Shown: piece by piece, positions 3,001-51,631 of the stretch
Numbering within the stretch: the first letter of the stretch is position 1
Layout: each line of letters starts with the position of its first letter
Assembly (NCBI RefSeq): GCF_024713945.1
Contig: NC_134682.1
Coordinates: forward strand, 3,479,001-3,543,000
Length of the DNA stretch: 64,000 nucleotides
Source: Dermatophagoides farinae
Lineage: Eukaryota; Arthropoda; Arachnida; Sarcoptiformes; Pyroglyphidae
Direction of reading: 5' to 3'
Made by a program: the position numbers and the translations under genes
The notes under the pieces: model-generated
The model's database searches: none
What the model saw: only the letters and a program-made list of their open reading frames with translations
What the model was told of the DNA's origin: nothing

Positions 3001-6000
3001 TTTTTCTTTTTTTTTGCTTTGAAACAAAAAAAAAACGTGCATGGTTGTAAGCTATAGAAGCTCGAGCCAGAACGCGCGACATTTCACGCGGCTCCAAGCA
3101 TTATGGGGAAAAAAAGGAGAAAGAGAAAAAAAAATACAAACCTTTCGGCTCCACACACACACAGAAACACACACAAGACAGATAGAAACTAAATTTGATC
3201 AAATGACCATATGGCCCCTTTATATGAATATTGACCACATACGACAAACATTGAACATGTTTTTTATTTTTTACTTCTCTTTCTCCTTTGACATTTTATT
3301 TTAGTTTTTTTTTTTGTTTTCTGGTTCAAGATTTATACACAAAAGAGTTGTTGCATGTATATATATGGCTAGATGGATATCCACCTATGCACATTACCTT
3401 TGACCTTTTTTTCTCTTTCTTCTAAACTGTCCTGAACAAATTTTCATATAATCAGAGAAAAATGTCATGAATTTTTTAAAATAGAAAAAAAAATCCCGAA
3501 AAAAAATAAATTTTAATGATAATCCATACCCTGGCTATGAATGAAGATTTAACCATCACCATCATCCATTGAAATGGAATTTCTAGACAAGAAAAAAAAA
3601 TCCAATGTAATTACGAAATAAATTGAAGAATTATATATGTCTAGTGAAAAATGAAAAAATTTCACCCAAAAAAAGGGTCTGACCCAGTAAATTATGGTGT
3701 TTATGGTTCGATTTTTATCTTTTGTGCAAGACTTAAAATAACGAACAATAATGAAGAATTAACCAATTTGTTTTTTTTTGTCGTTGAAAGGTTCATTTCT
3801 TTTTCTATTCGTAGTTTTCAATAGTAGCACTTAATTTTAATAAATGAGATTGGTCATTAGCCTGACCACAATGACAACAGCAGCAGCAGCAGCAACAACA
3901 ACTGAAACACCATTGAACTTTGAACCCCGAGGGGCCACGTTCGGCTTTGTTACAGCGAAAATTACGCAATCGGCTACCATCGATATCGGTGGACAAAGAT
4001 TTGAAAACATTATTTTTTTACACCAAAAAAAAAATACCAGTATATCTGTAGCCTGAAGCCAAGAATTTTTTTTTCAATTCATTTTCAATGTGAATGAGTA
4101 ACCTACGTGTGTTTGATTCATTATTCGTGTGAATGAACATTCATGACACCCATTCATACGGTATTTTGAAGATTATGTAACAAACATTTTTTACAAGGAA
4201 CGATTCGAGACTAATTGATTTCGTTCGTTTGTGGCCATAATCGAAAATCCTTTTTTTTTGATTAGCGAAAAAACAGAAAAAAAACATTCATAACGGGAAA
4301 ATATTCAAAAAGCGAAGGAGAGAACACAAATTACGAATAATTTATGTGACATAACCCGTGAAGAAGAAAAAATATGCCATTTCGTTGTTATTTGAATTCA
4401 AGTGCAACGAATTATCTTGAGAAAAAAAAATTCAATTTAAAATTTTAGAGGCTAAGATTCAGGTGTGTATGTGCGAATGACTGACCAGAAAAAAAATCTT
4501 GTCAGAAACCAAAAAAAAAAAAAAAACACGGGCAAAATTCACGTCACATCAAACAAGATAAAATCCCATTGACCCTCATTATTTGATAATCTTTTGATCG
4601 AACCAAATCGGACAAAACCTTAAAAAAAAATTATCACGATGTTGTTTTCATCACAATCCAATCAATTAATTTAAATGGAACCAAATTGTTTATTATTGTT
4701 TTGGTGTGTGTATGTGAAAACCGAAATAGCCAATAGTTGGGGGAGGTTTAATCAACCAAAAGAGAAAAAAAAACATTCAATGTTATCATTGGATTTGAAT
4801 CAGAAGAAAAAAAAAACTGAACAACTTTGTGTGTATGTGTGTGAGTGACCCATCATGGCTAATCAAATCAAATCAAGAACTGGACAAACAAATAAATAAA
4901 ATGCAGAAAAACAAACTTATTCTTTTTTTCATGATGAAGAGTTAAAAGTTACTTGACGTAATAAGTTATTTCTTTTTTTTTCTTTTTCTTTGCAAAATAA
5001 TAATGAAAACAAACGTATTTGTTTGATTTTTTTTTTGAAATTTGAAAAGAAAGAAATTTGAGTATTTAAAATTGGAATAGAAAATCTTATTGAAATCAAA
5101 AAAAAAAAGATAAAAGAAATAAGAGATAAGACACACAAACACACACACACAGGAAATAATAAAGACTTTATTAGGCACATTGAATATTATTGAGACTAAA
5201 AAAAAAAAAAAACAAATTGATAAAATGACAATTGATAACAACAACGATGACGACAACAACAACAAATAACTGTTGTGACCACAAACAATGTTGTCACGTA
5301 AATCAGTGGCCCATCAAATGTCTTTCAGATGGAACATGTGTGTGTGTGTGTGTGTGTGGCCAATCTTATCACATTATCTTTTGGATTCAATCTTTTCTGG
5401 CAAAGAAAAAAAATGAAATGATCCAAAAATATAATAAGAAGACGAGACTGACAATTTTTTTTTCATGTGGGTTTTTTTTTGGGGGGGAAACAACAGAGAA
5501 AAGAAAGATCATAAATTGAAAATTAGCCATTGGATAGCTGCTGGACAGCCACTGCAACACAATCATTTTTTTTTACTTTTATTGTGTAAACACAAAAAAA
5601 AGCAGAAGCAGCAACCACAATGTTCTTTAGATGGATACCTTTACCTGAAAAACCTAAAGAAGATGAACTTTTACTTTTTTTTTAGTGCCAAAATCGTAAA
5701 TTACTTTTGGGATTTTTGTATTAGTCACCAATGATCAAATAATAAAACCATCTGTGATGAGATTACAATAAAATAAAATAATGAGCCATGGATATTTGAC
5801 ATCGGAAACAATTTCCAACATCCGGTGGTAATTCGGACGATATTTTTTTTTAATGTTCAAGCGATAAAAAAAAGTTTGAATTTTTTTTCCTGAAGATACA
5901 ACGGGCACTGAATCTCTTTCATCATTTAAAACAGCAACAGGTTAGAGACATCTGTTCTTGGGCCATTGGAGAAAAAAAAATTAACCGAATTTTTATTTTG

Positions 6001-13056: not shown

Positions 13057-14605
13057 TTAACCAGACAATTTCGATGATAACATTGTAAAACGTGCATAGA
13101 ATAACATTAGCTATTATGAAAATGTTTAAAAGGTGGACATTAATATTTATATGAATTGAAAAACAAACAAAATTTGTTAATATTTACCTTACAGAATATT
13201 CCTTTAGTCAATACGGTAATTGTACCGATTTTAATTCCCCATGGTTTTATATTCACCATACGTTCATAATAATTCATGATTAGAAATTTAAATCTTCTAC
13301 ATGATTGTTTATCAATCACTATGATCATTCGTTGTAAATCAAAACGTATTGCATTCAATTTTGAATTGAATTTCGATATGAAATATGTTAATGCGATGAT
13401 AAAATTAAAATAACATACCAATGTATAATATAGAAAAAATATTAAAAAAATTTGATCATTTTGTATCTGTTTCAACAGATATAAAACTAGCTGTGTTCCA
13501 ACAGTACCGATAATCAATATCCATAATATTAATCTTGACATATAAAGTTGTATTTCTTCACTAAATATTATTAAACGTGTATATAGCTTTAATAAACGAT
13601 TTATGTTATATTCAATTAATCGTATATTCATTCGATCATTGATATTTAATTTTTTTCGTTTATTTGTAATCCATTCATATAATGTTAATATTTTTCGTAT
13701 ATCCATACGAATTTGTCGTACAGTTTTCATGCCCAACATCATTGTATATGATCCAATAAAGAATGGACTATATGCAAAAATTGCTGTAAAATTCATTGAA
13801 ATTGGCAATAGTTGTATCATCAATATAGAGATTATTAGCTGCCATAATGGACGATTGATATTGATTAATTTATCAAATATAAATATAAAGAAACATAAGT
13901 TCAATAATGCTAATCGATTGATTGATTGATTGATTGATAAAAAAAAAATATAGATTAGATGATGATTTGATATGAAAAATGTATTATGATGAACTTACCA
14001 TGAAATATTTGTCCAATAGAAATCCAACGATTCATAAATAAACGAAATTGTTTAAAATTTGTGGAAAATTTTCTTAATGAATAATTAAATAACAAACATG
14101 ATGATCGAGAATAATTTCCACATTTTTCTATCATTATTCTATACATTTTATCAAAATCATCATTAAATTCTTGCATATAAATAATTAACGTACGAAATGC
14201 TAATGAATTCTGTGTATAGAATGTATTATAAATAACAATTTCTGATACAAGACAAATATTTGCAATGAATAATGATATAATTTTTTCAGTCATTTGTTGA
14301 CCATCCGGAATGATGATTGTGGTTAAATCACCGATTAAAAAACGAAATGTATCCGAATATTGGATATAATTGAAACTTTTTGTTATATAAAATATGCCCA
14401 ATAATGTGGATAGGATAAATTGTAATTTTTCCAACAATGGTAACAATATGAATAGATGATAAAATCCATATTGATTATTTAACAATAAGAATGATGTTTG
14501 ATATTCGAACACTGTTCGATATGATGATAATGAATAGGAATTTAGATAGATAATTGAAAAAATTTGATAAATAATTTGTAATTGATTATCCAATTTGGTC
14601 ATCAT
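13057..14605 (-). CDS. Chemoreceptor-like 7TM protein A (gustatory-receptor-like), 3 exons
   Basis: Proposed exons are 13999-14605, 13188-13909 and 13057-13110; introns of 89 and 77 nt have GT-AG ends. The join gives 460 residues with multiple membrane segments and no other recognisable domain. The end of exon 2 carries YYERMVNIKPWGIKIGT followed by VLTKGIFCK. Exon 3 is a 54-nt exon encoding LMLFYARFTMLSSKLSG and a stop. Arthropod gustatory receptors also end in a short, phase-conserved terminal exon, so a chemosensory receptor of that superfamily is the best guess, though the insect TYhhhhhQF signature is not exact. The paralogue at 16939-18556 has the same exon layout and phases (1, then 0), which supports the model. 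Assignment to the Gr family is inference; the gene model itself is stronger. Confidence 0.65.
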
Positions 14606-15056
14606 TTTGGTTTATATTGATGAATGATGATGGTGATGATTTTTTTTCTCTCTTGAAATTCTCAAAATCGACAGATAGTAGTGTGGCTGATATCACTCTA
14701 TACAATGGAATCGTTTGCCATGTAAAATTTAATCATTCTGATCTAAAAGTGAAAAAAAATTTTTTCCATTACATTTCAAATTCCATATATCATGAAATGA
14801 AACTTGGAAGATGAAAATTAAAAAAAAAAAATTTTAATAATAACAAAAAATTCTAGCCAATCAATCAATCGACCATGAGAGAAAAAAATTTTTTCATTTT
14901 TTCTTTTCTTGAAAACAATGCCATTAATTATGACTATGACTACGATGAACTAATTTCAAAATGAATGAATGAGAAAAATGAAAAATTTGTTGAATCGAAA
15001 TCGATCCACCATCATTTGATTGATTGATGGATGATGATGATGATGAATCGTTGTGT
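14606..15056. other. Intergenic
   Basis: Upstream region of receptor A. It contains poly-A/T runs and a block (about 14855-15060) that recurs downstream of zinc-finger copy 1 (about 16700-16940), showing that the flank was co-duplicated. No gene seen. Confidence 0.6.
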
Positions 15057-15335
15057 TTATGTGAACAATTTACTCCATAACATTGTGAAACGTATGAAAA
15101 ATATCATTAACTATATTTGTTTTGTTTTAAAAAATTGTTTTCGTGCAAAAATAAAAATAAAAGAAAAGAAAATATTAATTTTTTTTGCTAGTTGATCGAT
15201 TAGAATAAAATATATATAAATTTACCTTACTAAATACCGTTTTTGCCAATATAGTAATAATTGTACCGATGGTTTCGTTGTAATTAGCCGTTCATAATAC
15301 GGTATTTAGATGAAAAAATGTTTTGTGATATTGTG
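15057..15335 (-). pseudogene. 3' fragment of chemoreceptor gene (copy i)
   Basis: On the minus strand this has the 54-nt terminal exon equivalent (ending FTMLWSKLFT, stop at 15057-15059), an intron-like stretch, and the tail of exon 2 (through about 15330), all closely matching receptor B at 16939-17250. The exon 2 part has lost the PWGI segment and stops after roughly 100 bp. It is a truncated duplicate with no start and lies directly upstream of zinc-finger copy 1. Confidence 0.75.
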
Positions 15336-15651
15336 AAATATATTTCAACAAAAATGTTTGTTCGAAATTTTTCGTGTTATTATTGTGTTCAATCTAGCGC
15401 CATCTGTACGTTGAATTTTGTATTTTAAAATTTCGTATTTATACATGACTAACACGTGTCTGAGTAGATATAGACATTATATTGTATTTAGAGCTTAGAG
15501 AGTATTTTATACAGTTCAACAAACGAGCAATTCGAAATTCTACTTACATTCCTTTTTCCTATTCGTGAATATTCGAATTTGATCATCTAATCATTGGATT
15601 TTTCTTTAAAAATATTGATACTTGTTATTCATCATTTTTTTTTTCGCCACA
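15336..15651 (+). promoter_or_regulatory. Conserved upstream block of zinc-finger copy 1
   Basis: This block recurs almost unchanged before all five zinc-finger copies. It includes GCGCCATCTGTACG (15397-15410; reverse strand AGATGGCGC, a CTCF-like core), a CACGTG E-box about 15448-15456, and a TATTTTATACAG element about 15500-15515. Its conservation suggests the promoter; sites are assigned by eye. Confidence 0.45.
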
Positions 15652-16550
15652 ATGTTTTCATCGTCCACAAAGGCCTATGTTGATAGATTTCTATCAGTAT
15701 TGGATCAAAATGAAAAAAATTTGATGCAATTTTTGGAATCATCATCGGTTGATGAAGAATACAATGAACTTATTGATGAATATCGACGTCAAAGCATTAT
15801 GGAATCAACAAATCTTTCTGAATTGGATCGCATCGAAAATCGTTATATCGAGGTTGAATCATTATCATCATCGAGTGATGAATACGATGAACGTATTGAC
15901 CACGAAAATCAACGACTAAATAATAATATACATAGAAATCGACCGATGACAATGGATTGTTCAACACAGGTAACCATGGCCAACAAACATTTGTTGATTA
16001 TTGTGATATATGATGCCGAATCTAATTTGGTTTTTTTATTCAATTCATCTAGACAGAAGATACCATGGCCACCATAAGTGATAACCATTGCGAAATGATA
16101 TCATCCGAATTGGAAAAAATGAAATCTAAATTTGACAATTTTTCACAACAAATCCAATCTATGAGTAATGTTTTCAACCATCATCGACAACAATCACCGT
16201 ATCATCAAGACCAACAAACATCTGTTTCAACGAATGTGGCATCTACTAGTTCCGGAGATAGTTCGATCAATAACGACAATGTAAACATGATGGATGATTG
16301 GAAATTTTCCTGTACAAAATGTCGATTCAAATTCGAAACAAAAGCTACGTTTAGTCGTCATTTAAGAAGTCATCGTCCGGGTCAAAAATATTTATGTGAA
16401 AAATGTGGCAATCTTTATAAATCTAGATCAATTCTCCGAAAACATTATCAGTTACATTCGAATTTGGAACCATTTAAATGTCACAAATGTAATGATAAAT
16501 TTAAACGTCGTGATTATCTTTACCAACATATGAGACGAAAACATTCTTAA
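15652..16550 (+). CDS. C2H2 zinc-finger protein, array copy 1 (2 exons)
   Basis: Exons are 15652-15969 and 16053-16550, with an 83-nt GT-AG intron in phase 0. The protein is 271 residues. The N-terminal half is acidic and helical (DRFLSVLDQNEKNLMQFLES). The exon junction creates DCSTQTED, a Thr-Gln-Thr motif typical of dynein light chain LC8 ligands. Exon 2 begins with a short coiled-coil-like helix and a Gln/Ser linker, then three C2H2 fingers at about residues 191-213, 219-241 and 248-270 (FSCTKC, YLCEKC, FKCHKC). I chose the ATG at 15652 because all five copies share it; the intron itself reads through in frame, so unspliced transcripts would give a shorter acidic protein without fingers. 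It is probably a DNA-binding regulator; its targets are unknown. Copy 5 is the nearest relative. Confidence 0.8.
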
Positions 16551-16938
16551 ATTGTGATTATGATGATGATGATGATGTAATTCACAATAGAAATGATAAA
16601 CATGATAACAGATATCTATATAGAATTTGTGGAAATAGATTTAAATTCAATTCCAACCCGTCCATAATGTAATTAAAAAAATTTTATATTAACAAAAATT
16701 CTAGACTATCAATCAATTGACCATGAGAGAAAAAAAACAAGCGATATTTCAATGAGCAAATTTTTTCATTTTTTCTTTTCTTGAAAAAAAAACGCCATTA
16801 ATTACGACTATGACTACGATGAACTAATTTCAAAATGAATGAATGAGAAAAATGAAAAATTTGAAAAATCGAAATCGATCCACCATCATTTGATGGATGG
16901 ATAATGATGATGATGATGATGATGATGAATCGTTGTGT
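16551..16938. other. 3' flank of zinc-finger copy 1
   Basis: Contains a (GAT)n run just after the stop, then a block repeated from about 14855-15060 upstream of the array. No gene. Confidence 0.6.
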
Positions 16939-18556
16939 TTATGTGAACAATTTACTCCATAACATTGTGAAACGTATGAAAAATATCATTAGCTATATTT
17001 GTTTTAAAAAATTGTTTTCGTGAAAAAATAAAAATAAAAGAAAAGAAAATATTAATTTTTTTCTTTGCTAGTTGATCGATTAGAATGAAATATATATTAA
17101 TATATAAATTTACCTTACTAAATACTGTTTTTGTCAATATAGCAATTGTACCAATACCAATACCCCATGGTTTTGTTGTAATTAGCCGTTCATAATATGT
17201 TGTCATATGGTATTTAAATGAAAAAGATGTTGTTCTGGCCAAACATGGCCTACTTAATAACTGAAAACGTATTGAATTCAATCGTGAATTTAATGTTGAT
17301 ATTGTAAATGTATAAACGATTATCATCAATATATTCAATATTAATGCATAATAACAGATAACCAATGAGATGAATTGATTTAGATCAATTTTTTTAATAC
17401 ATACAATAAACACTTGACTACTTATCATGTTGACCACTAATGACCATAATACTAATTTCGATACATATGGTTGTATATCTTCTATGAATAAAATCAATCT
17501 TGTATACATTTCATAGAATTTTTTCAATTTTTTTTCCACCATCATTTTACGTAATCGTAGCATTAAATTCATTTTATAATTTTTATCAATAAAAACAATA
17601 ATTGATTCATATTCTTTTGTTGTTTGATTAATATCGGATTTAAATTTTTTTATCGATCTATTTGCAACACTCATTGCATATGATCCAATCAATAATGCAG
17701 AATAGGCAAATGTTGTACAGAAATTGATAAAAATGAATATTATTTGTAATGAACTAAATCTTATAATCATTTGCCATATTGTTTCATCATCATATGATGA
17801 TGATGTATGAAAATCCAACAGATAAACACAAATATTTAACATGACTGAAATGAAATGAAATGTAGAGAACAAAAATCAATTATCAATTAAATCAAATCAT
17901 CATCATCACTTACAATGTAATATCTGTACTAGATAGTAGAATCGATTCATAAATTTTTTAAATTCAATTGCTTTCATTAAATTATTAATGGTCAAATAAT
18001 CAAATAATTTACATGTTTTTATTGAATATTTTTGATGATAATAATAATAATTATTATTATGTTCAATTATTTCCACAATTTTATCATCAGAATTTCTATC
18101 ATCATTCAATTCACGTAAATAAATGATCATTGTACGGAATGCTGATGAATAATGTGTATGAAATGTATAATAGATTAATATTTCAGCCGCAATAATACAA
18201 TGACAAAAACAAATGGAAATAATATTTTCAATAAAAATTGAATAGCCTGCAATCAATGGTGTTAAATCATTGATTAATCGTTTGAATGTTGGCGGATATT
18301 TGATCAAACCAATACCTTTGGTTAGAAAGTATATAGCTTGTATTATTCCGATCAGGAATTGTATTTGTTCGTATTTTGTCAATGATAATATCAATAATGG
18401 CCATGATTCGGATGATGATGGAGGATTTAATAGTAAAAAATGTGTATAAAAATCAAATACAGATGGAAATATTTTTGATGAATATGATGATAAATAGAAT
18501 TTTGATAATATATGATATGTATTGTGTAAAATATTATCCAATTTGAATATTTTCAT
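16939..18556 (-). CDS. Chemoreceptor-like 7TM protein B (gustatory-receptor-like), 3 exons
   Basis: Exons are 17914-18556, 17114-17844 and 16939-16992, with GT-AG introns of 69 and 121 nt in phases 1 and 0, exactly as in receptor A. The product is 475 residues and polytopic. Near the end of exon 2 it has YYERLITTKPWGIGIGT then AILTKTVFSK, and the 54-nt last exon encodes LMIFFIRFTMLWSKLFT. This copy, not A, is the source of the antisense fragments lying before the zinc-finger copies: the intron 2, exon 3 and flank sequences match. It sits between zinc-finger copies 1 and 2 on the opposite strand. The receptor-family call rests on topology, the terminal-exon layout and the conserved PWGI/LTK motif. 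Confidence 0.65.
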
Positions 18557-19079
18557 CTTCTTTATGTATGGTTTTTTTTCTCTCTCTCTCTACGTTGATA
18601 ATAATACGTCGTGATGATGACTATGTTTCGAATGTGAATGATAATAATTATTCAAAAAAAATTTCATCTTGATATCAATTCCAGGATCGATAATAATAAC
18701 AACATATAAATCAAATTGTTTATGTTGTCATTACATATCGAAAATGTCATTTTGTGCAATGAATTTCTCTTCATTTCAAAAAATAATTTCTTCTTTTTTT
18801 TCTGAATAAGATTCTAAAATAAGGGTTATATATTAATATTTATTATAATACAATGGGAACTCTACTCACGAACAATTGTGTGTTTCAGAAGAATCGTTCG
18901 TCACTCGAATTTCTGACATTTGAATGGCGAACAATTTATTTTATTCAAAATTTGGAAATCAATTTGAATAGAATAGAAAATTATTTTAATCAAATTATCA
19001 TCATCATCATTCATTAACTTTAATTTCAACATGTTTGTTCGAAATTTTTTGTGTTATTATATTATTGTGTCCAATCTGT
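18557..19079. other. Intergenic, upstream of receptor B
   Basis: AT-rich with CT and (CAT)n runs. From about 19030 it enters the conserved zinc-finger-type upstream block (with an AACGCCATCTTTATG variant at 19080-19094). No gene seen. Confidence 0.55.
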
Positions 19080-19125
19080 AACGCCATCTTTATGTTGAAT
19101 TTTGTATTAAAATTTAGTATTCATA

Positions 19126-19165
19126 CATGACTAACACGTGTAATATATTGCACGTGTTAGTCATG
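19126..19165. repeat. Perfect 15-bp inverted repeat with 10-bp loop
   Basis: CATGACTAACACGTG (19126-19140) is followed by a 10-nt spacer and its exact reverse complement (19151-19165). Each arm contains the CACGTG E-box found once in the other upstream blocks, so this is an inverted duplication at the junction where the zinc-finger upstream block meets unrelated sequence. Confidence 0.85.
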
Positions 19166-19226
19166 TTTAATGTTTTATTCCTTTTGTATTGAAATTTGTG
19201 CATTTTTTCAGTTTCTCGTAAAAATA

Positions 19227-19406
19227 ATGGACACATTGTCTAATAAAGACAAACGGTACATTCGCGAAAATTTGGCAAAAATAAGCGAGCAGATTATTTG
19301 TAAGAAGCCAAGAGCTCAAATAATCGCCGCTTATTCTTGGCTAATTAAAAGAATGTGGGAAATTTCACAAAGCAAAATGAAACATATGAAACGAAAACAT
19401 CCTTAA
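19227..19406 (+). CDS. Chimeric short ORF: unknown N-terminus joined to zinc-finger tail
   Basis: This 59-residue frame starts MDTLSNKDKRYIRENLAKI, continues in a basic helical segment (KKPRAQIIAAYSWLIKRMW), and ends in HMKRKHP followed by the same 3' flank as zinc-finger copies 2 and 4. The last eight codons are thus the end of a zinc-finger gene fused to another gene. A 40-bp stretch (AATCGCCGCTTATTC and onward) from the unknown part occurs before the fused tail (about 19314) and again after it (about 19453), as if the tail had been inserted with duplication. Whether it is expressed is unknown. Confidence 0.4.
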   Translation: MDTLSNKDKRYIRENLAKISEQIICKKPRAQIIAAYSWLIKRMWEISQSKMKHMKRKHP

Positions 19407-19450
19407 TTTGTGATTATGATGATATTGATGTGATTCGCAATAGAATTTGT

Positions 19451-20135
19451 GGAAATAATCGCCGCTTATTCTCGGCTAATTAAAAGAATGTGGGGAATTG
19501 CCGAGAAAAATGAAACAATTTGTTTCGAGGTGTTTTGCAATATTGAAAGCAAAATTTGATTGTTGTATTGAATTATTGTATTTTGAATTATACTATTGTC
19601 TAAAAAGGTCGATATTGATTCATGGAAACGAATCAATATTCACATGTCATCGATTTCACAAAGCAAAATGCCGGAGTTTCTTTTAATGAAACTGAAACAA
19701 GATCTGAAACGGGCTAATCGTTTAAAAATTCAAAATCAGTAAGTTACGACTAAAATACGTAATTCAAACTAATTGTGTAAATTTTTTCGATAATCGTATT
19801 GTAGACGGCACAAAAAAGAAAATTTGATCCCAACCATGAACTGGTTAACGAATGCAAGAAATTGCGAAAGGGGATCATTGCATCTGCCAATTGTTCTGAA
19901 CATGGCACCTTTTTCACCAATTACAAAGACCTATATTATCATTTATGCGAGGACCATCCGTAAGTGTAAATGTAGACAATTTATTTATATAATTTTTCAT
20001 TACATCTTGTCTATGATGCTATAGAGAAACATTTGTCTGTCCATCAAATGAAAGATGACGATGTTCGTGATGTCCTGCTGCCAGTCAATAATGATGGTGA
20101 AGAAACGAAATCCAGTTCTGAAGTAGATTGGAATT
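19451..20135 (+). pseudogene. Degraded multi-exon gene, unknown family
   Basis: Beyond the chimera, exon-like pieces of one gene can be read. One is around 19669-19738 (MPEFLLMKLKQDLKRANRL, ending at a GTAAGT donor). A second is about 19805-19951, ending CEDHP before a GTAAGT donor, in a frame rich in Cys/His (NCSEHGTFF, YYHLCEDHP). A third is about 20025-20137, ending SSSEVDWN and a stop. The pieces do not join in one frame: the second needs a shift at an A-run near 19813 and the third is off by one base. The host gene was not recognised; the Cys/His spacing hints at a zinc-binding module. Confidence 0.4.
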
Positions 20136-20186
20136 AATATTCCACTGGCCATGAGCAAGCAGTTATACATGAAGATATCTAACTGG

Positions 20187-20515
20187 GTAGATCGTTTTTT
20201 GACATTGTCAAATACGAATTGCCAGTGGAATTGTATTCAAAATTCATTGAATTTTGCAAATCGGTAAACAAGTGTCGATTAAAATTTCATATGACACAAA
20301 AAGCCATTTCGTCATTTCACGAAGCATATACAAATATATTTGAATTGGACAGTTTGAATCAAAAATTGCAAAATTTTATGACTAAATTTGCTAATTCAAA
20401 ATATTTACAAAAAAAAAAAAAATTCTCTTTAGAAAAATTGTTAATTTCTAATTTATTTTTTGTAAACTTCAGAACTCACTTATGATTCGATATTTTCATA
20501 TAATTTCAATTGTGT
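20187..20515 (+). pseudogene. Exon-like segment, copy 1 of a duplicated pair
   Basis: An open stretch of about 88 residues (PVELYSKFIEFCKSVNKC and onward) has ordinary coding composition but no upstream start that fits. A second copy, almost identical, follows zinc-finger copy 2 at 22131-22473. It may be a further exon of the degraded gene just upstream. Family unknown. Confidence 0.4.
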
Positions 20516-20957
20516 TTCAAGTATTATTTTCTTCAATTTCAAGAATTACCAATGGATCAACATGGATAATTTCAGTTTTCTTTTTAATTTCATTGTCTTC
20601 AACATTCTGAAACTTTTGATTAGAATAATTTTAACTCTGTAAATAGATATGTTCGTATTTAAACAATCTTAAATCAATAATAATTTAATAACAGAATTGT
20701 TTGTTTCATTTGACCAACTACAACACTTCCAATTATTGCTAAATTAAATTACAATAACTGCCACGTTTTTTAACAGTGGTTGAAGTGAAGTAGCAGTTGA
20801 AGTGGGGGTGGTGGTTGAAATTTTGGTTTTTGGAATTTCGGCATTACATTTTTTCATGAAGATAGATTTTTGTTAATTAGGAAAAGGATATGGTTGTGCA
20901 CTCCTGATGAAGAAGGGTCAAAGACTTAGCAAAGTTCATAATTTTTCGACCGTCCGA
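20516..20957. other. Spacer; includes segment recurring before copies 3 and 5
   Basis: From about 20858 to 20957 a block (GCACTCCTGATGAAGAAGGG and flanks) recurs at 22485-22575 and 26622-26715, each time leading into an antisense receptor fragment. The rest is AT-rich with no gene. Confidence 0.6.
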
Positions 20958-21060
20958 TTAGCCGTTCATAATACGGTATTTAAATAAAAAAATGTTTTGG
21001 TCAAACTTGGCGTACTTAATAGCTGAAAACGTATTGAATTTAATCGTGAATTCACGTTTG
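20958..21060 (-). pseudogene. Chemoreceptor exon 2 fragment (copy ii)
   Basis: Antisense to the zinc-finger copies, this matches receptor B around 17183-17290 (the NYYERL to LNSIRFQL region) with small deletions. It has no exon 3, start or stop of its own. It directly precedes the zinc-finger upstream block. Confidence 0.7.
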
Positions 21061-21353
21061 TTCAAAATTTTTCGTGTTATTATTGTGTTCAATCTAACGC
21101 CATCTGTACGTTGAATTTTGTATTTTAAAATTTCGTATTTATACATGACTATTACGTGTCTGAGTAGACATATAGACATTATATTGTATTTAGAGCTTAG
21201 AGAGTATTTTTTATACAGTTCAACAAACGAGCAATTCGAAATTTTACCTACATTCCATTTTCATATTTTTGAATATTCGAATTTTATCATCTAACCATTG
21301 AGTTTTTCATTAAAAATATTGATACTTAATATTCATCATTATTTTTCGCAACA
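21061..21353 (+). promoter_or_regulatory. Conserved upstream block of zinc-finger copy 2
   Basis: Same block as before copy 1. The CTCF-like AACGCCATCTGT is at 21096-21107; the E-box is altered here (ATTACGTGTC instead of ACACGTGTC). Confidence 0.45.
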
Positions 21354-22096
21354 ATGTCCACAAAGGCCTATCTTGATAGATTTCTATCAGTAGTGGATCA
21401 AAATGACAAAAATTTGATGCAATTTTTGGAATCATCATCGGTTGATCAAGAATACACTGAACTTATTGATGCATTTCGACGTCAAAGCATTGAAGAATTA
21501 ACAAATCTTCTTTCTGAATTGGATCCCATCAAAAATCCTAATATTGAGGTTGCATCATCTCATGATGAATACGGTGAACGTATTGACCACCAGAATCAAC
21601 GACTAAATAATGTGCTTAAAAATCGACCGATGACAATGGATCGTTCAACACAGGTAACCATGGCCAACAAACATTTCCATGGCCAACAAACATTTGTTGA
21701 TTATTGTGATATATGATGCCGAATCTAATTTGGTTTTTTTTTATTCAATTCATCCAGACAGAAGATACCATGGCTAACATAAGTGATAACCATTGCGAAA
21801 TGATATCATCCAAATTTGGACAAATGTTCTTTCACTTTCAAGATGGGAAATTTTCCTGTCCAAAATGTACATTCAAATTCGAAACAACATTAGCGTTTCG
21901 TCGTCATTTAAGAAGTCATCGTCATAGTCTAAAATATTTTTGTGAAAAATGTGGCGATCGTTTCAAAAGTAGAATAACTCTCCGCAAACATGTTAAGTTG
22001 CATTCGAATTTGAAACCATATAAATGTCCCAAATGTAATGCTGAATTTAAACGTCATGATCAATTTTACATCCATATGAAACGAAAACATCCTTAA
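21354..22096 (+). CDS. C2H2 zinc-finger protein, array copy 2 (short linker)
   Basis: Exons are 21354-21653 and 21758-22096, phase 0. The product is 212 residues, about 58 fewer than copies 1, 3 and 5, because the coiled-coil/Gln-Ser linker between the splice junction and the fingers is missing. The start is also shorter (MSTKAY; the FSS residues are absent). The junction reads DRSTQTEDT, so the Thr-Gln-Thr motif is kept, with Arg before it. Three intact C2H2 fingers remain (FSCPKC, YFCEKC, YKCPKC). Fingers 2 and 3 are nearly identical to those of copy 4. It is the most diverged copy in exon 1. Confidence 0.75.
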
Positions 22097-22130
22097 TTTG
22101 TGAATTATGATGATATGGATGTGATTCGCA

Positions 22131-22473
22131 AATATCGAACTGGGTAGATCGTTTTTTGACATTGTCAAATACGAATTGCCAGTGGAATTGTATTCAAAAT
22201 TCATTGAATTTTGCAAATCGGTAAACAAGTGTCGATTAAAATTTCATATGACACAAGAAGCCATTTCGTCATTTCACGAAGCATATACAAATATATTTGT
22301 ATTGGACAGTTTGAATCAAAAATTGCAAAATTTTATGACTAAATTTGCTAATTCAAAATATTTACAAAAAAAAAATTCTCTTTAGAAAAATTGTTAATTT
22401 CTAATTTATTTTTTGTAAACTTCAGAACTCACTTATGATTCGATATTTTCATATAATTTCAATTGTGTTTCAT
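22131..22473 (+). pseudogene. Exon-like segment, copy 2 of a duplicated pair
   Basis: Almost identical to 20187-20515, including the PVELYSKFIEFCKSVNKC frame. It is fused directly to the 3' flank of zinc-finger copy 2; the following roughly 340 bp present after the first copy are missing here. It is fragmentary and of unknown family. Confidence 0.45.
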
Positions 22474-22574
22474 TATTAAGAAGATAGATTTTTGTTAATT
22501 AGGAAAAGGATATGGTTGTGCACTCCTGATGAAGAAGGGTCAAAGACTTAGCAAAGTTCATAATTTTTCGACCG

Positions 22575-22680
22575 TCCGATTAGCCGTTCATAATACGGTA
22601 TTTAAATAAAAAAATGTTTTGGTCAAACTTGGCGTACTTAATAGCTGAAAACGTATTGAATTTAATCGTGAATTCACGTT
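22575..22680 (-). pseudogene. Chemoreceptor exon 2 fragment (copy iii)
   Basis: Nearly identical to the fragment at 20958-21060, with the same breakpoints (ATTAGCCGTTCATAATACGG). The two therefore descend from one event followed by duplication of the whole unit. Confidence 0.7.
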
Positions 22681-22971
22681 TGTTCAAAATTTTTCGTGTT
22701 ATTATTGTGTTCAATCTAACGCCATCTGTACGTTAAATTTTGTATTTTGAAATTTCGTATTTATACATGACTAACACGTGTCTGAGTAGATATAGACATT
22801 ATATTGTATTTAGAGCTTAGAGAGTATTTTATACAGTTAAACAACCGAGCAATTCGAAATTCTACCTACATTCCTTTTTCCTATTCTTGAATATTCGAAT
22901 TTGATGATTTAAATATTGGATTTTTCTTTAAAAATATTGATACTTGATATTCATCATTATTTTTCGCCACA
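22681..22971 (+). promoter_or_regulatory. Conserved upstream block of zinc-finger copy 3
   Basis: Same block; CTCF-like core at 22718-22729, CACGTG E-box about 22775, TATTTTATACAG element about 22825. Confidence 0.45.
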
Positions 22972-23858
22972 ATGTTTTCATCGTCCACAAATGACTATGT
23001 TGATAGATTTCTATCAGTATTGGATCAAAATGAAAAAAATTTGATGCAATTTTTGGAATCATCATTGGCTGATGAAGAATACAATAAACTTTTGGATGAA
23101 TATCGACGTCAAAGCATTATGGAATCAACAAATCTTTCTGAATTGGATCGCATCGAAAATCGTTATATTGAGGTTGAATCATCATCATCGGATGATGAAT
23201 ACGGTGAACGTATTGACAACGAAAATCAACTACTAAATAATAATGTGCATGAAAATCGACCGATAACAATGGATTGTTCAACACAGGTAACCATGGCCAG
23301 CAAACTTTTGTTGATTATTGTAATACATGAATCTAATTTGGTTTTTTTATTTAATTCATCCAGACAGAAGCCACCATGGCCACCATAAGTGATAAACATT
23401 GCGAAATATCATCCGAATTGGAGCGAATGAAATCTCAATTTGACAATTTTTCACAACAAATCCAATCTATGAGTAATGTTTTCAACCATCATCGACAACA
23501 ATCACCGTATCAACAAGACCAACAAACATCGGTTACAATGAATGTGGCATCTACAAGTTCCGGAGATAGTTCGATCAATAACAACAATATAAACATTATG
23601 GATGATCGGAAATTTTCCTGTCCAAAATGTCGATTCAAATTCAAAACAAGAGCTACGTTTAGTCGTCATTTAAGAAGTCATCGTCCAGGTCAAAAATATT
23701 TCTGTGAAAAATGTGGCAATCTTTTCAAAAATAGAATAACTCTCCGCAATCATTATCTTTTACATTCGAATTTGAAACCATTTAAATGTCACAAATGTAA
23801 TGATAAATTTAAACGTCAAGATTATCTTCACTACCATATGAAACGATACCATCCTTAA
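22972..23858 (+). CDS. C2H2 zinc-finger protein, array copy 3
   Basis: Exons are 22972-23286 and 23364-23858 (phase 0, 77-nt GT-AG intron); 269 residues. Exon 1 has the variant SLADEEYNKLLDEY, shared only with copy 4. The junction reads DCSTQTEAT. Exon 2 keeps the full linker and three C2H2 fingers; finger 2 (FKNRITLRNHYLLH) and finger 3 (FKRQDYLHYHMKRYH) differ from the other copies at helix positions that usually contact bases. If they bind DNA, the copies may have different targets. Confidence 0.8.
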
Positions 23859-23932
23859 ATTGTGATTATGATGCTGTTGATATGATTCACAATAGAATTT
23901 GTGGAAATTCCAACCCATCCATAATGTAATTA
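23859..23932. other. 3' flank of zinc-finger copy 3
   Basis: Short copy of the shared 3' flank. It joins receptor-derived sequence near 23933. Confidence 0.5.
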
Positions 23933-24260
23933 TAATACATTGTGAAACGTATGAAAAATATCATTAGCTATATTTGTTTGTTTTGCCCCTATATATTATG
24001 GAATAGGGGTTGTCTCTGTTTTTTCATTAAAAAAATATTTGTTTTAAGTTGTTTTCGTGAAGAAATAAAAATGAAAGAAAATAAAATATTAATTTTTTTC
24101 TAGATGAACAATTAAAATGAAATATAAATTTACCTTACTAAATACCGTTTTTGTCAATTTAGCAATTGTACAGATACCAATACCCCCATTGGTTTCGTTG
24201 TAATTAGCCGTTCATAATACGGTATTTAGATGAAAAAATGTTTTGTGATATTGTGAAATA
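23933..24260 (-). pseudogene. 3' fragment of chemoreceptor gene (copy iv)
   Basis: On the minus strand this has most of the terminal exon (LMIFFIRFTML), the intron with an extra insertion of about 60 bp (near 23985-24045), and the tail of exon 2 with loss of the PWGI coding part. It resembles copy (i) at 15057-15335 and lies before zinc-finger copy 4. Confidence 0.7.
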
Positions 24261-24566
24261 TAGTTCAACAATGTTTGTTTGAAATTTTTAGTGTTATTAT
24301 TGTGTTCAATTTAACGCCATCTGTACGTTGAATTTTGTATTTTGAAATTTCGTATTTATACATGACTAACACGTGTCTGAGTAGATATAGACATTATATT
24401 GTATTTAGAGCTTAGAGAGTATTATATACAGTTCAACAAACGAGCAATTCGAAATTCTACTTACATTCCTTTTTCCTATTCGTGAATATTCGAATTTGAT
24501 CATCTAATCATTGGATTTTTCTTTAAAAATATTGATACTTGATATTCATCATTATTTTTCGCCACA
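24261..24566 (+). promoter_or_regulatory. Conserved upstream block of zinc-finger copy 4
   Basis: Same block; CTCF-like core at 24313-24324, CACGTG E-box about 24370. Confidence 0.45.
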
Positions 24567-26457
24567 ATGTTTTCGTCGTCTACAAATGACTATGTTGATA
24601 GATTTCTATCAGTATTGGATCAAAATGAAAAAAATTTGATGCAATTTTTGGAATCATCATTGGCTGATGAAGAATACAATAAACTTTTGGATGAATATCG
24701 ACGTCAAAGCATTATGGAATCAACAAATCTTTCTGAATTGGATCGCATCGAAAATCGTTATATCGAGGTTGAATCATCATCATCATCGAGTGATGAATAC
24801 GATGAACGTATTGACAATGAAAATCAACTACTAAATAATATTAGGAAATTAAGAAAGTACTGTCGTTTTTTGTATATAACTTTTTGGAATTGTTGTCCCA
24901 AAAATTTGGTAAAGGTTTTGACATCGTGTATGACCTCGATTTATTCTTTGATAACCAGGCTTTAATTCAAAAATAAATTTTTTCCAACTTTGGCTACCGG
25001 AAGTGCTAGCCAGCCTCTGGTATTCGACCCATTAAAAATCAAAATTTTAGCCATTTCGATTTTTTGCTCGTGGTGACCCCGACGAAAGAGGTAATGGTCA
25101 TCTGACCACTCAATGAAAATTCCACATGTCCTGGGAGTTGAAAAAAATTATGAGCGTAATTCTCCCGCAACTCATTTTTTCTAGAGGGCGGGTCAAAATC
25201 CATTGATTGAGTGATTGCCAATGGTATTGCCCATTAACAAATTCAATGGGCAATGCCATTGGCAGAGTGGCTGACGGCACATGCATTGCATGGTCGGTTA
25301 TGCGATTTTTAAAATTTCTAAGAATTTGGAATTTTTCTTCAACCAAAATTTTTTGTTGATTTTTTGGTTAGCCAAAATCGTTTTGTGCAATAATTGATCA
25401 AAATTTTTAAAAAATTTTATTTTGAAGCATATTTTTCCTATGGCGGAATAACACAGTGGCTGATAGCGGCCGACCGGATTTTGACCCGCCCTCTAGAAAA
25501 AATGAGTTGCGGGAGAATTACGCTCATAATTTTTTTCAACTCCCAGGACATGTGGAATTTTCATTGAGTGGTCAGATGACCATTACCTCTTTCGTCGGGG
25601 TCACCACGAGCAAAAAATCAAAATGGCTAAAATTTTGATTTTTAATGGGTCGAATACCAGAGGCTGGCTAGCACTTCCGGTAGCCAAAGTTGGAAAAAAT
25701 TTATTTTTGAATTAAAGCCTGGTTATCAAAGAATAAATCGAGGTCATACACGATGTCAAAACCTTTACCAAATTTTTGGGACAGCAATTCCAAAAAGTTA
25801 TATACAAAAAACGACAGTACTTTCTTAATTTCCTAATAATATACATAGAAATCGACCGATGACAATGGATTGTTCAACACAGGTAACCATGGCCAACAAA
25901 CATCCGTTGATTATTGTAATACATGAATCTAATTTGGTTTTTTTATTCAATTCATCCAGACAGAAGATACCATGGCTACCATAAGTGAAAAACATTGCGA
26001 AATGATATCATCCGAATTGGGACAAATGAAATCTAAATTTGACAATTGTTCACAACAAATCCAATCTTTGAGTAATGTTTTCAACCATTATCGACAACAA
26101 TCACCGTATCAACAAGACCAACAAACATCGGTTACAATGAATGTGGCATCTACAAGTTCCGGAGATTGGTCGATCAATAACAACAATATAAACATGATGG
26201 ATGATCGGAAATTTTCCTGTCCAAAATGTCGATTCAAATTCAAAACAAGAGCTACGTTTAGTCGTCATTTAAGAAGTCATCGTCATAGTCTAAAATATTT
26301 TTGTGAAAAATGTGGCGATCGTTTCAAAAGTAGAATAACTCTCCGCAAACATGTTAAGTTGCATTCGAATTTGAAACCATATAAATGTCCCAAATGTAAT
26401 GTTGAATTTAAACGTCATGATCAATTTTACATCCATATGAAACGAAAACATCCTTAA
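24567..26457 (+). pseudogene. C2H2 zinc-finger gene, array copy 4, split by a transposon
   Basis: Exon 1 starts at 24567 and is interrupted at 24841-25836 by a 996-bp foldback element; it resumes to the donor at 25882, and exon 2 is 25960-26457. The two exon 1 parts, counting the TA target once, sum to 318 nt, the exact length of exon 1 in copies 1 and 5, so the gene was intact before insertion. Reading into the element stops at 24963-24965 after 132 codons, so a full zinc-finger protein is not made unless the element is spliced out or exon 2 has its own start. Exon 2 is open with three intact fingers. The sequence is a mosaic: like copy 3 through finger 1 and like copy 2 for fingers 2 and 3. 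Confidence 0.8.
24841..25836. mobile_element. Foldback MITE with 361-bp terminal inverted repeats, mariner-like ends
   Basis: The ends are TTAGGAAATTAAGAAAGTAC and its inverse. The left arm 24841-25201 and right arm 25476-25836 are both 361 bp and almost identical in reverse complement. A TA dinucleotide lies on each side (24839-24840 and 25837-25838), as for Tc1/mariner insertions; the TTAGG start fits mariner termini. The 274-bp centre has no transposase and holds a second small hairpin (about 25216-25262, 19-bp arms with one mismatch). It is non-autonomous. High arm identity suggests a recent insertion, but sequence exchange between arms could also explain it. Confidence 0.85.
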
Positions 26458-26711
26458 TTTGTGATTATGATGATATTGATGTTATTCACAATAGAAATGA
26501 TAAACCAGATATCTATGTAGAATTTGTGCAATGTCATTAGTTATATTTGTTTTGTTTAAAAATTTTTTTTCGTGAAAAAATAAAAATAAAAGAAAAACAA
26601 AATATTAACATTTTTTCATGAAGATATATTTTTGTTAATTAGGAAAAGGATATGGTTGTGCACTCCTGATGAAGAAGGGTCAAAGACTTAGCAAAGTTCA
26701 TAATTTTTCGA
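26458..26711. other. 3' flank of copy 4 and unit junction
   Basis: Begins with the common 3' flank, includes a short receptor-intron-like piece (about 26530-26605), then the GCACTCCTGATGAAG spacer block. No gene. Confidence 0.5.
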
Positions 26712-26820
26712 CCGACCGATTAGCCGTTCATAATACGGTATTTAAATAAAAAAATGTTTTGGTCAAACTTGGCGTACTTAATAGCTGAAAACGTATTGAA
26801 ATTAATCGTGAATTCACGTT
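26712..26820 (-). pseudogene. Chemoreceptor exon 2 fragment (copy v)
   Basis: Same fragment and breakpoints as copies ii and iii, placed just before the upstream block of zinc-finger copy 5. Confidence 0.7.
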
Positions 26821-27112
26821 TGTTCGAAATTTTTAGTGTTATTATTGTGTTCAATCTAACGCCATCTGTACGTTGAATTTTGTATTTTAAAATTTCGTAT
26901 TTATACATGACTAACACGTGTCTGAGTAGATATAGACATTATATTGTATTTAGAGCTTAGAGAGTATTATATACAGTTCAACAAACGAGCAATTCGAAAT
27001 TCTACTTACATTCCTTTTTCCTATTCGTGAATATTCGAATTTGATCATCTAATCATTGGATTTTTCTTTAAAAATATTGATACTTGTTATTCATCATTTT
27101 TTTTTCGCCACA
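26821..27112 (+). promoter_or_regulatory. Conserved upstream block of zinc-finger copy 5
   Basis: Same block; CTCF-like core at 26858-26869, CACGTG E-box about 26915. Confidence 0.45.
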
Positions 27113-28008
27113 ATGTTTTCATCGTCCACAAAGGCCTATGTTGATAGATTTCTATCAGTATTGGATCAAAATGAAAAAAATTTGATGCAATTTTTGGAAT
27201 CATCATCGGTTGATGAAGAATACAATGAACTTATTGATGAATATCGACGTCAAAGCATTATGGAATCAACAAATCTTTCTGAATTGGATCGCATCGAAAA
27301 TCGTTATATCGAGGTTGAATCATTATCATCATCGAGTGATGAATACGATGAACGTATTGACCACGAAAATCAACGACTAAATAATAATATACATAGAAAT
27401 CGACCGATGACAATGGATTGTTCAACACAGGTAACCATGGCCAACAAACATTTGTTGATTATTGTGATATATGATGCCGAATCTAATTTGGTTTTTTTAT
27501 TCAATTCATCTAGACAGAAGATACCATGGCCACCATAAGTGATAACCATTGCGAAATGATATCCGAATTGGAACAAATGAAATCTAAATTTGACAATTTT
27601 TCACTACAAATCCAATCTATGGGTAATGTTTTCAACCATCATCGACAACAATCACCGTATCATCAAGACCAACAAACATCTGTTTCAACGAATGTGGCAT
27701 CTACTAGTTCCGGAGATAGTTCGATCAATAACGACAATGTAAACATGATGGATGATTGGAAATTTTCCTGTACAAAATGTCGATTCAAATTCGAAACAAA
27801 AGCTACGTTTAGTCGTCATTTGAGAACTCATGGTCCGGGTCAAAAATTTTTATGTAAAAAATGTGGCAATCTTTTCAAATGTAAATCAAATCTCCGAAGA
27901 CATTATCAGTTACATTCGAATTTGGAACCATTTAAATGTCACAAATGTAATGATAAATTTAAACGTCGTGATTATCTTTACCAACATATGAGACGAAAAC
28001 ATTCTTAA
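27113..28008 (+). CDS. C2H2 zinc-finger protein, array copy 5
   Basis: Exons are 27113-27430 and 27514-28008 (83-nt intron, phase 0); 270 residues. Exon 1 and the linker are almost identical to copy 1, and the junction again reads DCSTQTED. The three fingers are intact, but finger 2 (FLCKKCGNLFKCKSNLRRH) has several replacements relative to copy 1, an uneven spread of change given the near identity elsewhere. It is the last unit of the array; its 3' flank runs to about 28135 and then to the DRAM-like genes. Confidence 0.8.
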
Positions 28009-28261
28009 ATTGTGATTATGATGATGATGATGATGTAATTCACAATAGAAATGATAAACATGATAACAGATATCTATATAGAATTTGTGGAAATAGATTT
28101 AAATTCAATTCCAACCCATCCATAATGTAATTGAAAATTTCAACTAAAACCTCTTAAAACGATCATATAAAACAAAATTATACTGATGTAAAGCAATCAT
28201 AATTTTCGTAAATAAACATTGATAATTATATTGATATATAATCAACACACACACAACACAT

Positions 28262-49837: not shown

Positions 49838-50412
49838 TCCAGTTCAGAATCGAGAAAATGACAAATCCAACCTAACACGATCAGTTCAGAATTCAAAATT
49901 CACAATCGAGAAAATGACAAGTCCAAACTAACACGACCAGTTCAGAATTCAAAATTCACAATCGAGAAAAAGGCAAATCCGACCTAACACGACCAGTTCA
50001 CAATCGAGAAAATAACAAATCCAACCTAACACGATCAGTTCAGAATCGAGAAAATAACAAATCCAACCTAAGACGACCAGTTCAGAATTCAAAATTCAAA
50101 ATAAAAAAAATAACAAGTCAAACTTTACACGACCAGTTCAGAATTCAAAATCAAAAAAATGGCAAATCCAAACTAACACGACAGTTCAGAATCGAGAAAA
50201 TAACAAATCCAACCTAAGACGACCAGTTCAGAATTCAAAATCAAAAAAATGGCAAATCCAAACTAACACGACAGTTCAGAATCGAGAAAATAACAAATCC
50301 AACCTAAGACGACCAGTTCAGAATTCAAAATCAAAAAAATGGCAAATCCAAACTAATACGACTAGTTCAGAATCGAGAAAATAACAAATCCAACCTAACA
50401 CGAGCAGTTCAG
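49838..50412 (+). repeat. Tandem array, left arm (about 40-56-bp unit)
   Basis: About a dozen units built from CAGTTCAGAATTCAAAATTC, ATCGAGAAAATGACAAATCC and AACCTAACACGACCAG, in short (about 41 bp) and long (about 56 bp) forms, with local triplication of an approximately 97-bp higher-order unit (50126-50400). Confidence 0.85.
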
Positions 50413-50580
50413 ATGGTTAGTTATTGGAATTAGTTACCAGAATTGGTTGGTTTCTATTCCGTTTTTTAGATTCATTAAAAATTATTTTCAATGATGAATT
50501 GTGTTTTCCAAGATTCAGAGTTAAATAATGTTTGTTACATTTAATTAATTCGATATGTATCGGATGTTCTGCCATTGAAG

Positions 50581-51325
50581 ATGAACTGGTCGTTTTAGTT
50601 TGGACTTGTTATTTTTTCGATTCTGAACTGGTTGTGTTAGGTCGGATTTGCCTTTTTCTCGATTGTGAATTTTGAATTCTGAACTGGTTGTGTTAGTTTG
50701 GATTTGCCATTTTCTCGATTGTGAATTTTGAATTCTGAACTGGTTGTGTTAGTTTGGATTTGTTATTTTCTTGATTTTGTACTGATCGTGTTAGGTCGGA
50801 TTTGCCATTTTCTCGATTCTGTATTTTGAATTCTGAACTGGTCGTGTAAAGTTTGACTTGTTATTTTTTTTATTTTGAATTTTGAATTCTGAACTGGTCG
50901 TCTTAGGTTGGATTTGTTATTTTCTCGATTCTGAACTGATCGTGTTAGGTCGGATTTGCCTTTTTCTCGATTGTGAATTTTGAATTCTGAACTGGTCGTG
51001 TTAGTTTGGACTTACCATTTTTTCCATTTTGAATTTTGAATTCTGAACTGGTTGTGTTAGTTTGGATTTGCCATTTTCTCGATTGTGAATTTTGAATTCT
51101 GAACTGATCGTGTTAGTTTGGATTTGTTATTTTCTCGATTCTGAACTGGTCGTGTTAGGTTGGATTTGTTATTTTCTTGATTTTGTACTGAACGTGTTAG
51201 GTCGGATTTGCCTTTTTCTCGATTGTGAATTTTGAATTCTGAACTGATCGTGTTAGTTTGGAATTGTTATTTTCTCGATTTTGAATTCTGAACTGGTCGT
51301 GTTAGTTTGGACTTGCCATTTCTAG
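50581..51325 (-). repeat. Tandem array, right arm, inverted
   Basis: The same units in reverse orientation (GAACTGGTCGTGTTAGTTTG, GGATTTGCCATTTTCTCGAT). Together with the left arm it gives a potential hairpin with a loop of about 170 bp. The arms are not perfect mirror images, so the units have turned over since inversion. Confidence 0.85.
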
Positions 51326-51631
51326 AATCTAGCACTTTTTGTAAAACATTGATTAATAAAAAATTGTTTAAAGAAGAATTGCTTTTATTTGTTTGTTTAA
51401 TTATACTTATTTTTCCTATGTTGGTTCCACTACAAACAATTCGCACAACTATTAATAGATATTTGACTAATCGAAGTACATGTTTTTGATTCAGGATTAC
51501 CATAATATTCAAATGTATCAAAACAAAAAATATTTTCATTTTATTAAATCTAAAATTTGGCGGCACAATCTTAGAATTTCGCGGCACACAAAAGTGCCGC
51601 GGCACAGTGGTTGAGAATGACTGTAGTAGAT

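What the first reader, a model, noticed from the sequence alone, without database searches (positions are those of the whole stretch)
15057..28130. Five-copy zinc-finger array in which every unit carries an antisense piece of a chemoreceptor gene
Seen directly: each of five two-exon C2H2 genes (plus strand) is preceded by a minus-strand 3' fragment of the receptor whose intact copy lies at 16939-18556. Units 2, 3 and 5 share one fragment breakpoint; units 1 and 4 share a longer one. So two classes of unit spread by duplication, one of which still contained the terminal exon. Expansion of a DNA-binding family together with receptor debris is an unusual pairing.
Basis: partly seen in the sequence, partly recalled or inferred. 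Interest (0 to 1): 0.75.

Follow-up and report, generated by a model that had tools for sequence, protein, structure and literature searches.

The report
Dust-mite zinc-finger array, receptor scraps hitchhiking
A dust-mite chromosome carries a row of five young zinc-finger (DNA-binding) genes copied together with the broken end of a neighbouring receptor-like gene; the receptor scraps look like passengers, but the DNA-reading parts of the zinc-finger copies seem to have changed unusually fast.

Summary
Five plus-strand, two-exon C2H2 units lie at 15342-28140, each preceded by a minus-strand 3' fragment of a three-exon receptor-like gene (R, 16939-18556). All five fragments share the same 10-bp and 4-bp gaps relative to R, so they descend from one frame-shifted receptor pseudogene. 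The cluster is a mosaic of unequal crossing-over and gene conversion; the receptor pieces are hitchhikers. A promoter remnant about 470 bp beyond R suggests an ancestral head-to-head R-ZF pair. Unit 4 is broken by a ~1 kb palindromic transposon; units 1, 2, 3, 5 are open. What deserves attention is the fingers: zinc ligands are unchanged, while DNA-contact positions carry 18 replacement changes per 27.5 sites against 9 synonymous per 46.5 (p about 0.002; five linked sequences; two Fisher tests not significant). The genome is very probably Dermatophagoides farinae. Ordinary birth-and-death evolution with a hint of diversifying DNA recognition.

The parts
15057..15341 (-). Receptor pseudogene fragment of unit 1 (class A): last exon, last intron, part of the exon before it
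   Evidence: 92% over 238 aligned bases to R 16962-17235; junction
15652..16550 (+). ZF unit 1 CDS: exon 1 15652-15969, intron 83 nt, exon 2 16053-16550; 271 aa, three C2H2 fingers
   Evidence: Pfam zf-C2H2 for exon 2
16939..18556 (-). Intact receptor-like gene R, three exons, 475 aa, seven hydrophobic segments
13080..14611 (-). Second receptor-like gene of the same family (36% identical to R over the middle exon)
19023..19141 (+). Remnant of a further ZF unit: 5' end of the ZF promoter, about 470 bp beyond the start of R
   Evidence: 84% to 15342-15459; distance
19383..19456 (+). 74-bp tail of a ZF gene inside a copy of an unrelated repeated gene, flanked by a 67-bp direct repeat
20846..21052 (-). 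Class B fragment of unit 2: ~110-bp segment plus receptor piece equal to R 17181-17290
   Evidence: 90.6% over 96 bases to R
21354..22096 (+). ZF unit 2 CDS: exon 1 21354-21653, exon 2 21758-22096; 212 aa, shortened linker, three fingers
22480..22674 (-). Class B fragment of unit 3; 195 of 195 aligned bases identical to unit 2
22972..23858 (+). ZF unit 3 CDS: exon 1 22972-23286, exon 2 23364-23858; 269 aa
23937..24262 (-). Class A receptor fragment of unit 4, with an internal insertion
   Evidence: 90.5% over 242 bases to R
24567..26457 (+). ZF unit 4: exon 1 from 24567 interrupted at 24835; exon 2 25960-26457 intact
24835..25842 (.). Palindromic DNA transposon-like insert, 367-nt arms 99% complementary, apparent TA target duplication
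26530..26814 (-). Class B fragment of unit 5: piece of last receptor intron/exon start (26530-26616), ~110-bp segment, receptor piece 26719-26814
27113..28008 (+). ZF unit 5 CDS: exon 1 27113-27430 (318 of 318 identical to unit 1), exon 2 27514-28008; 270 aa

Best explanation
A young tandem cluster of short C2H2 zinc-finger genes in a dust mite, grown by unequal crossing-over and reshuffled by gene conversion. The starting unit was probably a receptor-like gene and a ZF gene lying head to head. One receptor copy died by frameshift, lost its 5' part in two different ways, and its 3' stub was then copied each time the ZF cassette was copied. The stubs most likely do nothing. The ZF genes are the selected part: four open copies encode three-finger proteins whose zinc-binding skeleton is kept while the DNA-reading residues differ, so the copies probably read different DNA sequences. 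Shown: copies, junction classes, shared frameshifts, mosaic structure, insertion in unit 4, finger pattern. Inferred: ancestral head-to-head pair, order of events, DNA binding, selection rather than drift.
For: Copies and junctions. Shared 10-bp and 4-bp gaps in all five receptor fragments; the related receptor has no gap against R at the larger one, so it is a loss. Promoter remnant beyond R. Recombination: 63 informative sites with junctions left out, 73 vs 126.1 incompatible neighbours, p 0.0002; same p with exons, intron and fingers alone, 55 vs 90.7; units 2/3 upstream 195/195 identical yet fingers 84.7%; units 1/5 exon 1 318/318 and intron 83/83 identical despite different upstream class. 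Fingers: contact positions 18 N per 27.5 sites vs 9 S per 46.5 in all fingers, p 0.0018; versus other finger positions p 0.0023; over all subsets and both contact definitions tried p runs from 0.0016 to 0.0118; permutation p 0.0066. Zinc ligands: 0 changes in 12 codons, 6.2 expected at the synonymous rate, P 0.002. The dispersed copy at C6:1.148 Mb, 5'-truncated and with a stop, has lost a zinc cysteine. Promoter and intron change at 0.10 per site.
Against: Fisher tests on contact versus other positions are not significant (N/S p 0.21; variable positions p 0.30). Only five sequences, linked by gene conversion, so changes are not independent. Apart from contacts, finger replacement and synonymous rates are about equal, and exon 1 is similar (pN 0.070, pS 0.051), which could be relaxed constraint. 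No expression data. The ancestral head-to-head order rests mainly on one 119-bp promoter remnant. No relative's genome was available.
Confidence: 0.78

Rival explanations
1. The array is decaying: duplicated ZF genes under no constraint, with random change and occasional gene conversion.
For: Whole-gene replacement rates are near the synonymous rate; unit 4 is broken, unit 2 lost most of its linker, the copy at C6:1.148 Mb is dead; Fisher tests for the contact positions are not significant.
Against: Four copies keep open frames and splice sites, and all five keep all twelve zinc ligands; contact residues exceed the synonymous rate.
Confidence: 0.2
2. The receptor fragments are kept because they matter, for example as part of the ZF promoter or as antisense RNA feeding the dust mite's siRNA pathway against the intact receptor.
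For: All five units retain one, always in the same position and antisense; dust mites lack piRNAs and make siRNAs from dsRNA (PMC5805368, abstract and one section).
Against: Fragments differ in length and breakpoints, and share only about 43 bp; related ZF loci L051 and L052 carry matching promoter sequence with no receptor match in the 9.9 kb fetched.
Confidence: 0.05
3. Assembly artefact: fewer copies, multiplied by misassembly.
For: The matching published assembly was merged from three assemblers (PMC11074847, passages).
Against: Units differ by about 2-14% by segment, have unit-specific insertions and deletions, and different junctions.
Confidence: 0.03

Closest known systems
KRAB zinc-finger gene clusters of mammals
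   Same: Tandem C2H2 clusters, duplication and gene conversion, excess replacement at DNA-contact residues (PMC2604467, passages; PMC5363842, passages)
   Different: No KRAB domain found in unit 1; three fingers rather than many; mite; five copies
ZAD-ZNF genes of insects
   Same: Lineage-specific arthropod C2H2 expansion with an N-terminal non-finger region; some show adaptive change in the finger region (three genes named in PMC7655104, passages)
   Different: No ZAD found in unit 1. In ZAD-ZNFs positive selection is reported as not primarily in the fingers but in the linkers (PMC7655104, passages); no positive selection was found in fly and mosquito poly-ZF expansions (PMC2604467, passages)
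FiNZ-ZNF genes of cyprinid fish
   Same: Independent ZNF expansion with its own N-terminal region; base-contacting residues enriched for dN/dS above 1 in two of seven clades tested (PMC10547256, passages)
   Different: About 700 genes in zebrafish with tested transposon repression; here five, untested
Gene fragments carried along in tandem duplications (recalled, no call)
   Same: A neighbour's truncated end copied with each unit
   Different: Nothing essential

Membership tests
Tandem C2H2 ZNF cluster of the birth-and-death kind | Several neighbouring paralogues in one orientation | tested here: met
   five units plus remnants
Tandem C2H2 ZNF cluster of the birth-and-death kind | Zinc ligands conserved | tested here: met
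   12 ligand codons unchanged in all five units
Tandem C2H2 ZNF cluster of the birth-and-death kind | Excess change at DNA-contact residues | tested here: inconclusive
   binomial p about 0.002 and permutation p 0.0066, but Fisher tests p 0.21 and 0.30; five linked sequences
KRAB-ZNF or ZAD-ZNF | KRAB or ZAD domain | tested here: not met
   Pfam scan of unit 1 exon 1 (E up to 10) and exon 2 (E up to 0.1) shows neither; only unit 1 of five was scanned
KRAB-ZNF-like transposon repressor | Binds and silences transposons | not testable with these tools
   needs binding and expression data
Insect-type chemoreceptor (gustatory receptor) family, for R | Seven transmembrane segments | tested here: met
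   seven hydrophobic segments by a simple hydropathy window
Insect-type chemoreceptor (gustatory receptor) family, for R | Sequence match to a receptor profile or solved receptor | tested here: inconclusive
   no Pfam match to the spliced R at E up to 10; no receptor among PDB sequence matches to the middle exon, one unrelated hit at E 7.2
Insect-type chemoreceptor (gustatory receptor) family, for R | Receptor fold | tested here: inconclusive

The most novel reading that the evidence does not exclude
The array is an arthropod counterpart of KRAB-ZNF clusters: short, fast-changing zinc-finger genes, largely confined to one chromosome, whose DNA-reading residues are renewed by finger-level gene conversion from older many-fingered paralogues, serving sequence-directed silencing of repeats in an animal that has lost piRNAs. 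The roughly 70-bp tract in unit 5 (unit 1 coordinates 16364-16432), which follows the paralogue at C6:4.41 Mb, would be an example of such renewal.
Probability: 0.12. Interest if true: 0.65.

Novelty: new member of a known kind. Interest (0 to 1): 0.36.

Why it matters
The receptor debris is ordinary. The finger pattern may matter: selection on DNA-contact residues is well documented in vertebrate ZNF clusters and was reported as absent or secondary in the insect ones examined (passages of PMC2604467 and PMC7655104), although one survey finds contact residues among the most variable positions in several animals, with fruit fly as the possible exception (PMC10547256, passages). A small, tractable case in a mite without piRNAs would let that difference be tested.

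Tried and rejected
Receptor fragments as mobile-element cargo: rejected; none of the eight ZF loci fetched (L049-L056) gave a receptor match, and the unit 5 DNA gave no match at the receptor clusters at C6:0.70 or 2.65 Mb. Origin of the ~110-bp class B segment: no match outside the array in one genome search, which skips very common words. The 19142-20519 segment as ZF-related: it is a copy of an unrelated dispersed gene or element. Proof that R is a gustatory receptor: Pfam, PDB sequence and fold searches were inconclusive. Pure point-mutation explanation for the unit 2/3 divergence: rejected, because synonymous divergence is raised too (0.164 in exon 2) while flanks are 99-100% identical. 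My first split count gave units 1+4 17 sites upstream; 15 of these lay at the class junctions, where the sequences are not homologous, so the count was redone without them (2 sites); the recombination result stayed. Parallel with mouse receptor and ZNF clusters: the passages seen in PMC5363842 compare them only as separate families. In the nine paper searches no listed title or abstract start described this cluster; I did not search for it by locus name. No other mite genome was available to compare.
Full report
Setting. The window is contig C6:3,479,001-3,543,000 of a genome of 62,435,336 bases in 22 contigs. The published chromosome-level assembly of Dermatophagoides farinae is 62.43 Mb (PMC11074847, passages), so the species is very probably D. 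farinae; this rests on size and general fit, not on a marker gene.

Observation. Self-comparison shows five plus-strand units. Units 1, 2, 3 and 5 each have an open two-exon frame with a GT-AG intron of 83, 104, 77 and 83 nt and encode 271, 212, 269 and 270 residues with three C2H2 fingers (Pfam for unit 1). Unit 4 is interrupted in exon 1 by a ~1008-bp palindromic element with 367-nt arms, 99% complementary, with an apparent TA target duplication; relatives of the element occur across the genome. Every unit has an upstream minus-strand receptor piece. Against R these are 92% (unit 1, 238 bases), 90.5% (unit 4, 242), 90.6% (units 2 and 3, 96) and 89.6% (unit 5, 96), gaps left out.

Receptor fragments. 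Class A (units 1, 4) holds the last exon, last intron and the end of the previous exon, with an apparent internal loss of roughly 60 bp. Class B (units 2, 3, 5) holds R 17181-17290 preceded by a ~110-bp segment found only in these three units. Unit 5 keeps 26530-26616 of the last intron as well. All five lack the same 10 and 4 bases relative to R. The second receptor, 36% identical, aligns without a gap to R at the larger one, so it is a loss, and neither number is a multiple of three: one dead receptor was the ancestor of all five pieces. R itself remains open for 475 aa. About 470 bp beyond the start of R lies a 119-bp piece of the ZF promoter (19023-19141), and the left flank of unit 1 (14825-15079) is 94% identical to the stretch between unit 1 and R. 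I infer an alternating, head-to-head R-ZF ancestor.

Mosaic. Informative two-state sites by segment, class junctions left out: shared receptor piece, units 1+4 2; promoter, units 2+3 3, 1+5 3, 4+5 2, 3+4 1; exon 1, units 3+4 9, 2+3 3; exon 1 end and intron, 2+3 3, 3+4 2, 1+5 1; exon 2 before the fingers, 2+4 2, 3+4 1, 2+3 1; fingers and 3' end, 2+4 18, 1+5 11, 3+4 1. Of these 63 sites, incompatible neighbour pairs number 73 against 126.1 in 5000 shuffles (p 0.0002); without the receptor piece and promoter 55 against 90.7 (p 0.0002). An earlier count (79 sites, 76 against 199.6) included the non-homologous junctions and overstated the upstream grouping. Units 2 and 3 are identical over 195 bases upstream and differ at 3 of 341 bases in a neighbouring repeat, yet at 38 of 249 in the fingers. 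Units 1 and 5 are identical in exon 1 (318) and intron (83) but differ at 14 aligned bases and one codon deletion in exon 2, 11 of the 14 within 78 bases. At those 11, unit 5 agrees with the paralogue at C6:4.41 Mb at 8, unit 1 at 1, neither at 2. That suggests a conversion tract from an older type of finger, or retention of it.

Fingers. Counting minimum changes over the last 84 codons of all five units: contact positions -1, 2, 3, 6 (numbering recalled and as in PMC2604467), 18 replacement changes per 27.5 sites and 1 synonymous per 8.5; zinc ligands 0 and 0; hydrophobic core 4 and 1; others 35 and 7. Contact replacement exceeds the synonymous rate of all fingers (p 0.0018) and replacement elsewhere in the fingers (p 0.0023), and p stays between 0.0016 and 0.0118 in the five subsets and two contact definitions tried. 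Permutation gives p 0.0066, but Fisher tests on N versus S (p 0.21) and on variable positions (p 0.30) are not significant. With five sequences and gene conversion this is suggestive, not proof.

Family. Of the ten matches outside the array to the unit 5 exon 2 protein at E up to 1e-12, nine are on C6 (86 matches in all); C6 is 5,241,854 bases, 8.4% of the genome. The nearest, at C6:1.148 Mb, is a 5'-truncated pseudogene with a stop and a lost cysteine. L050 and L051 have six fingers by pattern and share the exon 1 region, so the array genes look like three-finger derivatives. The receptor family has 14 matches including R, 13 on C6. Neither Pfam nor PDB sequence searches name R; a low-confidence model of its middle exon lists insect receptors BmGr9 and AgamOR28 among unrelated helical proteins with higher scores. 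'Receptor-like' is the fair label. [quoted passage not shown] pteronyssinus.

Verdict. The finding is real and its explanation mostly ordinary: a tandem duplication carried a dead neighbour along. The part worth a specialist's time is the contrast between frozen zinc ligands and changing contact residues, which in the passages read is documented for vertebrate clusters (PMC2604467; PMC10547256) and reported as absent or secondary in the insect ones examined (PMC2604467; PMC7655104), though contact residues are also said to be among the most variable positions in a range of animals (PMC10547256).

Noticed in passing
24835-25842: Palindromic ~1 kb transposon-like element, arms 99% complementary, in unit 4 exon 1; 78 matching stretches in the genome including itself, arms counted on both strands.
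   Followed up: partly
19142-20519: Degenerate copy of an unknown multi-exon gene or element with relatives on C2, C3, C5 and C6; its 3' part is repeated at 22132-22472 and a ZF-gene tail sits inside it between 67-bp direct repeats.
   Followed up: partly
C6 of G000 (window contig): Both the ZF family and the receptor family are concentrated on this one chromosome (9 of the 10 matches outside the array at E up to 1e-12; 13 of 14 receptor matches).
   Followed up: partly
L052 (C6:4,020,400-4,030,300), 4618-4701: About 80 bp of the array's ZF promoter lies between two divergent ZF reading frames without a receptor match.
   Followed up: no
49839-51330: Dense direct and inverted repeats at about 76-96% identity in the window.
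   Followed up: no
19118-19165: Near-perfect palindrome with two CACGTG cores at the edge of the promoter remnant (seen).
   Followed up: no
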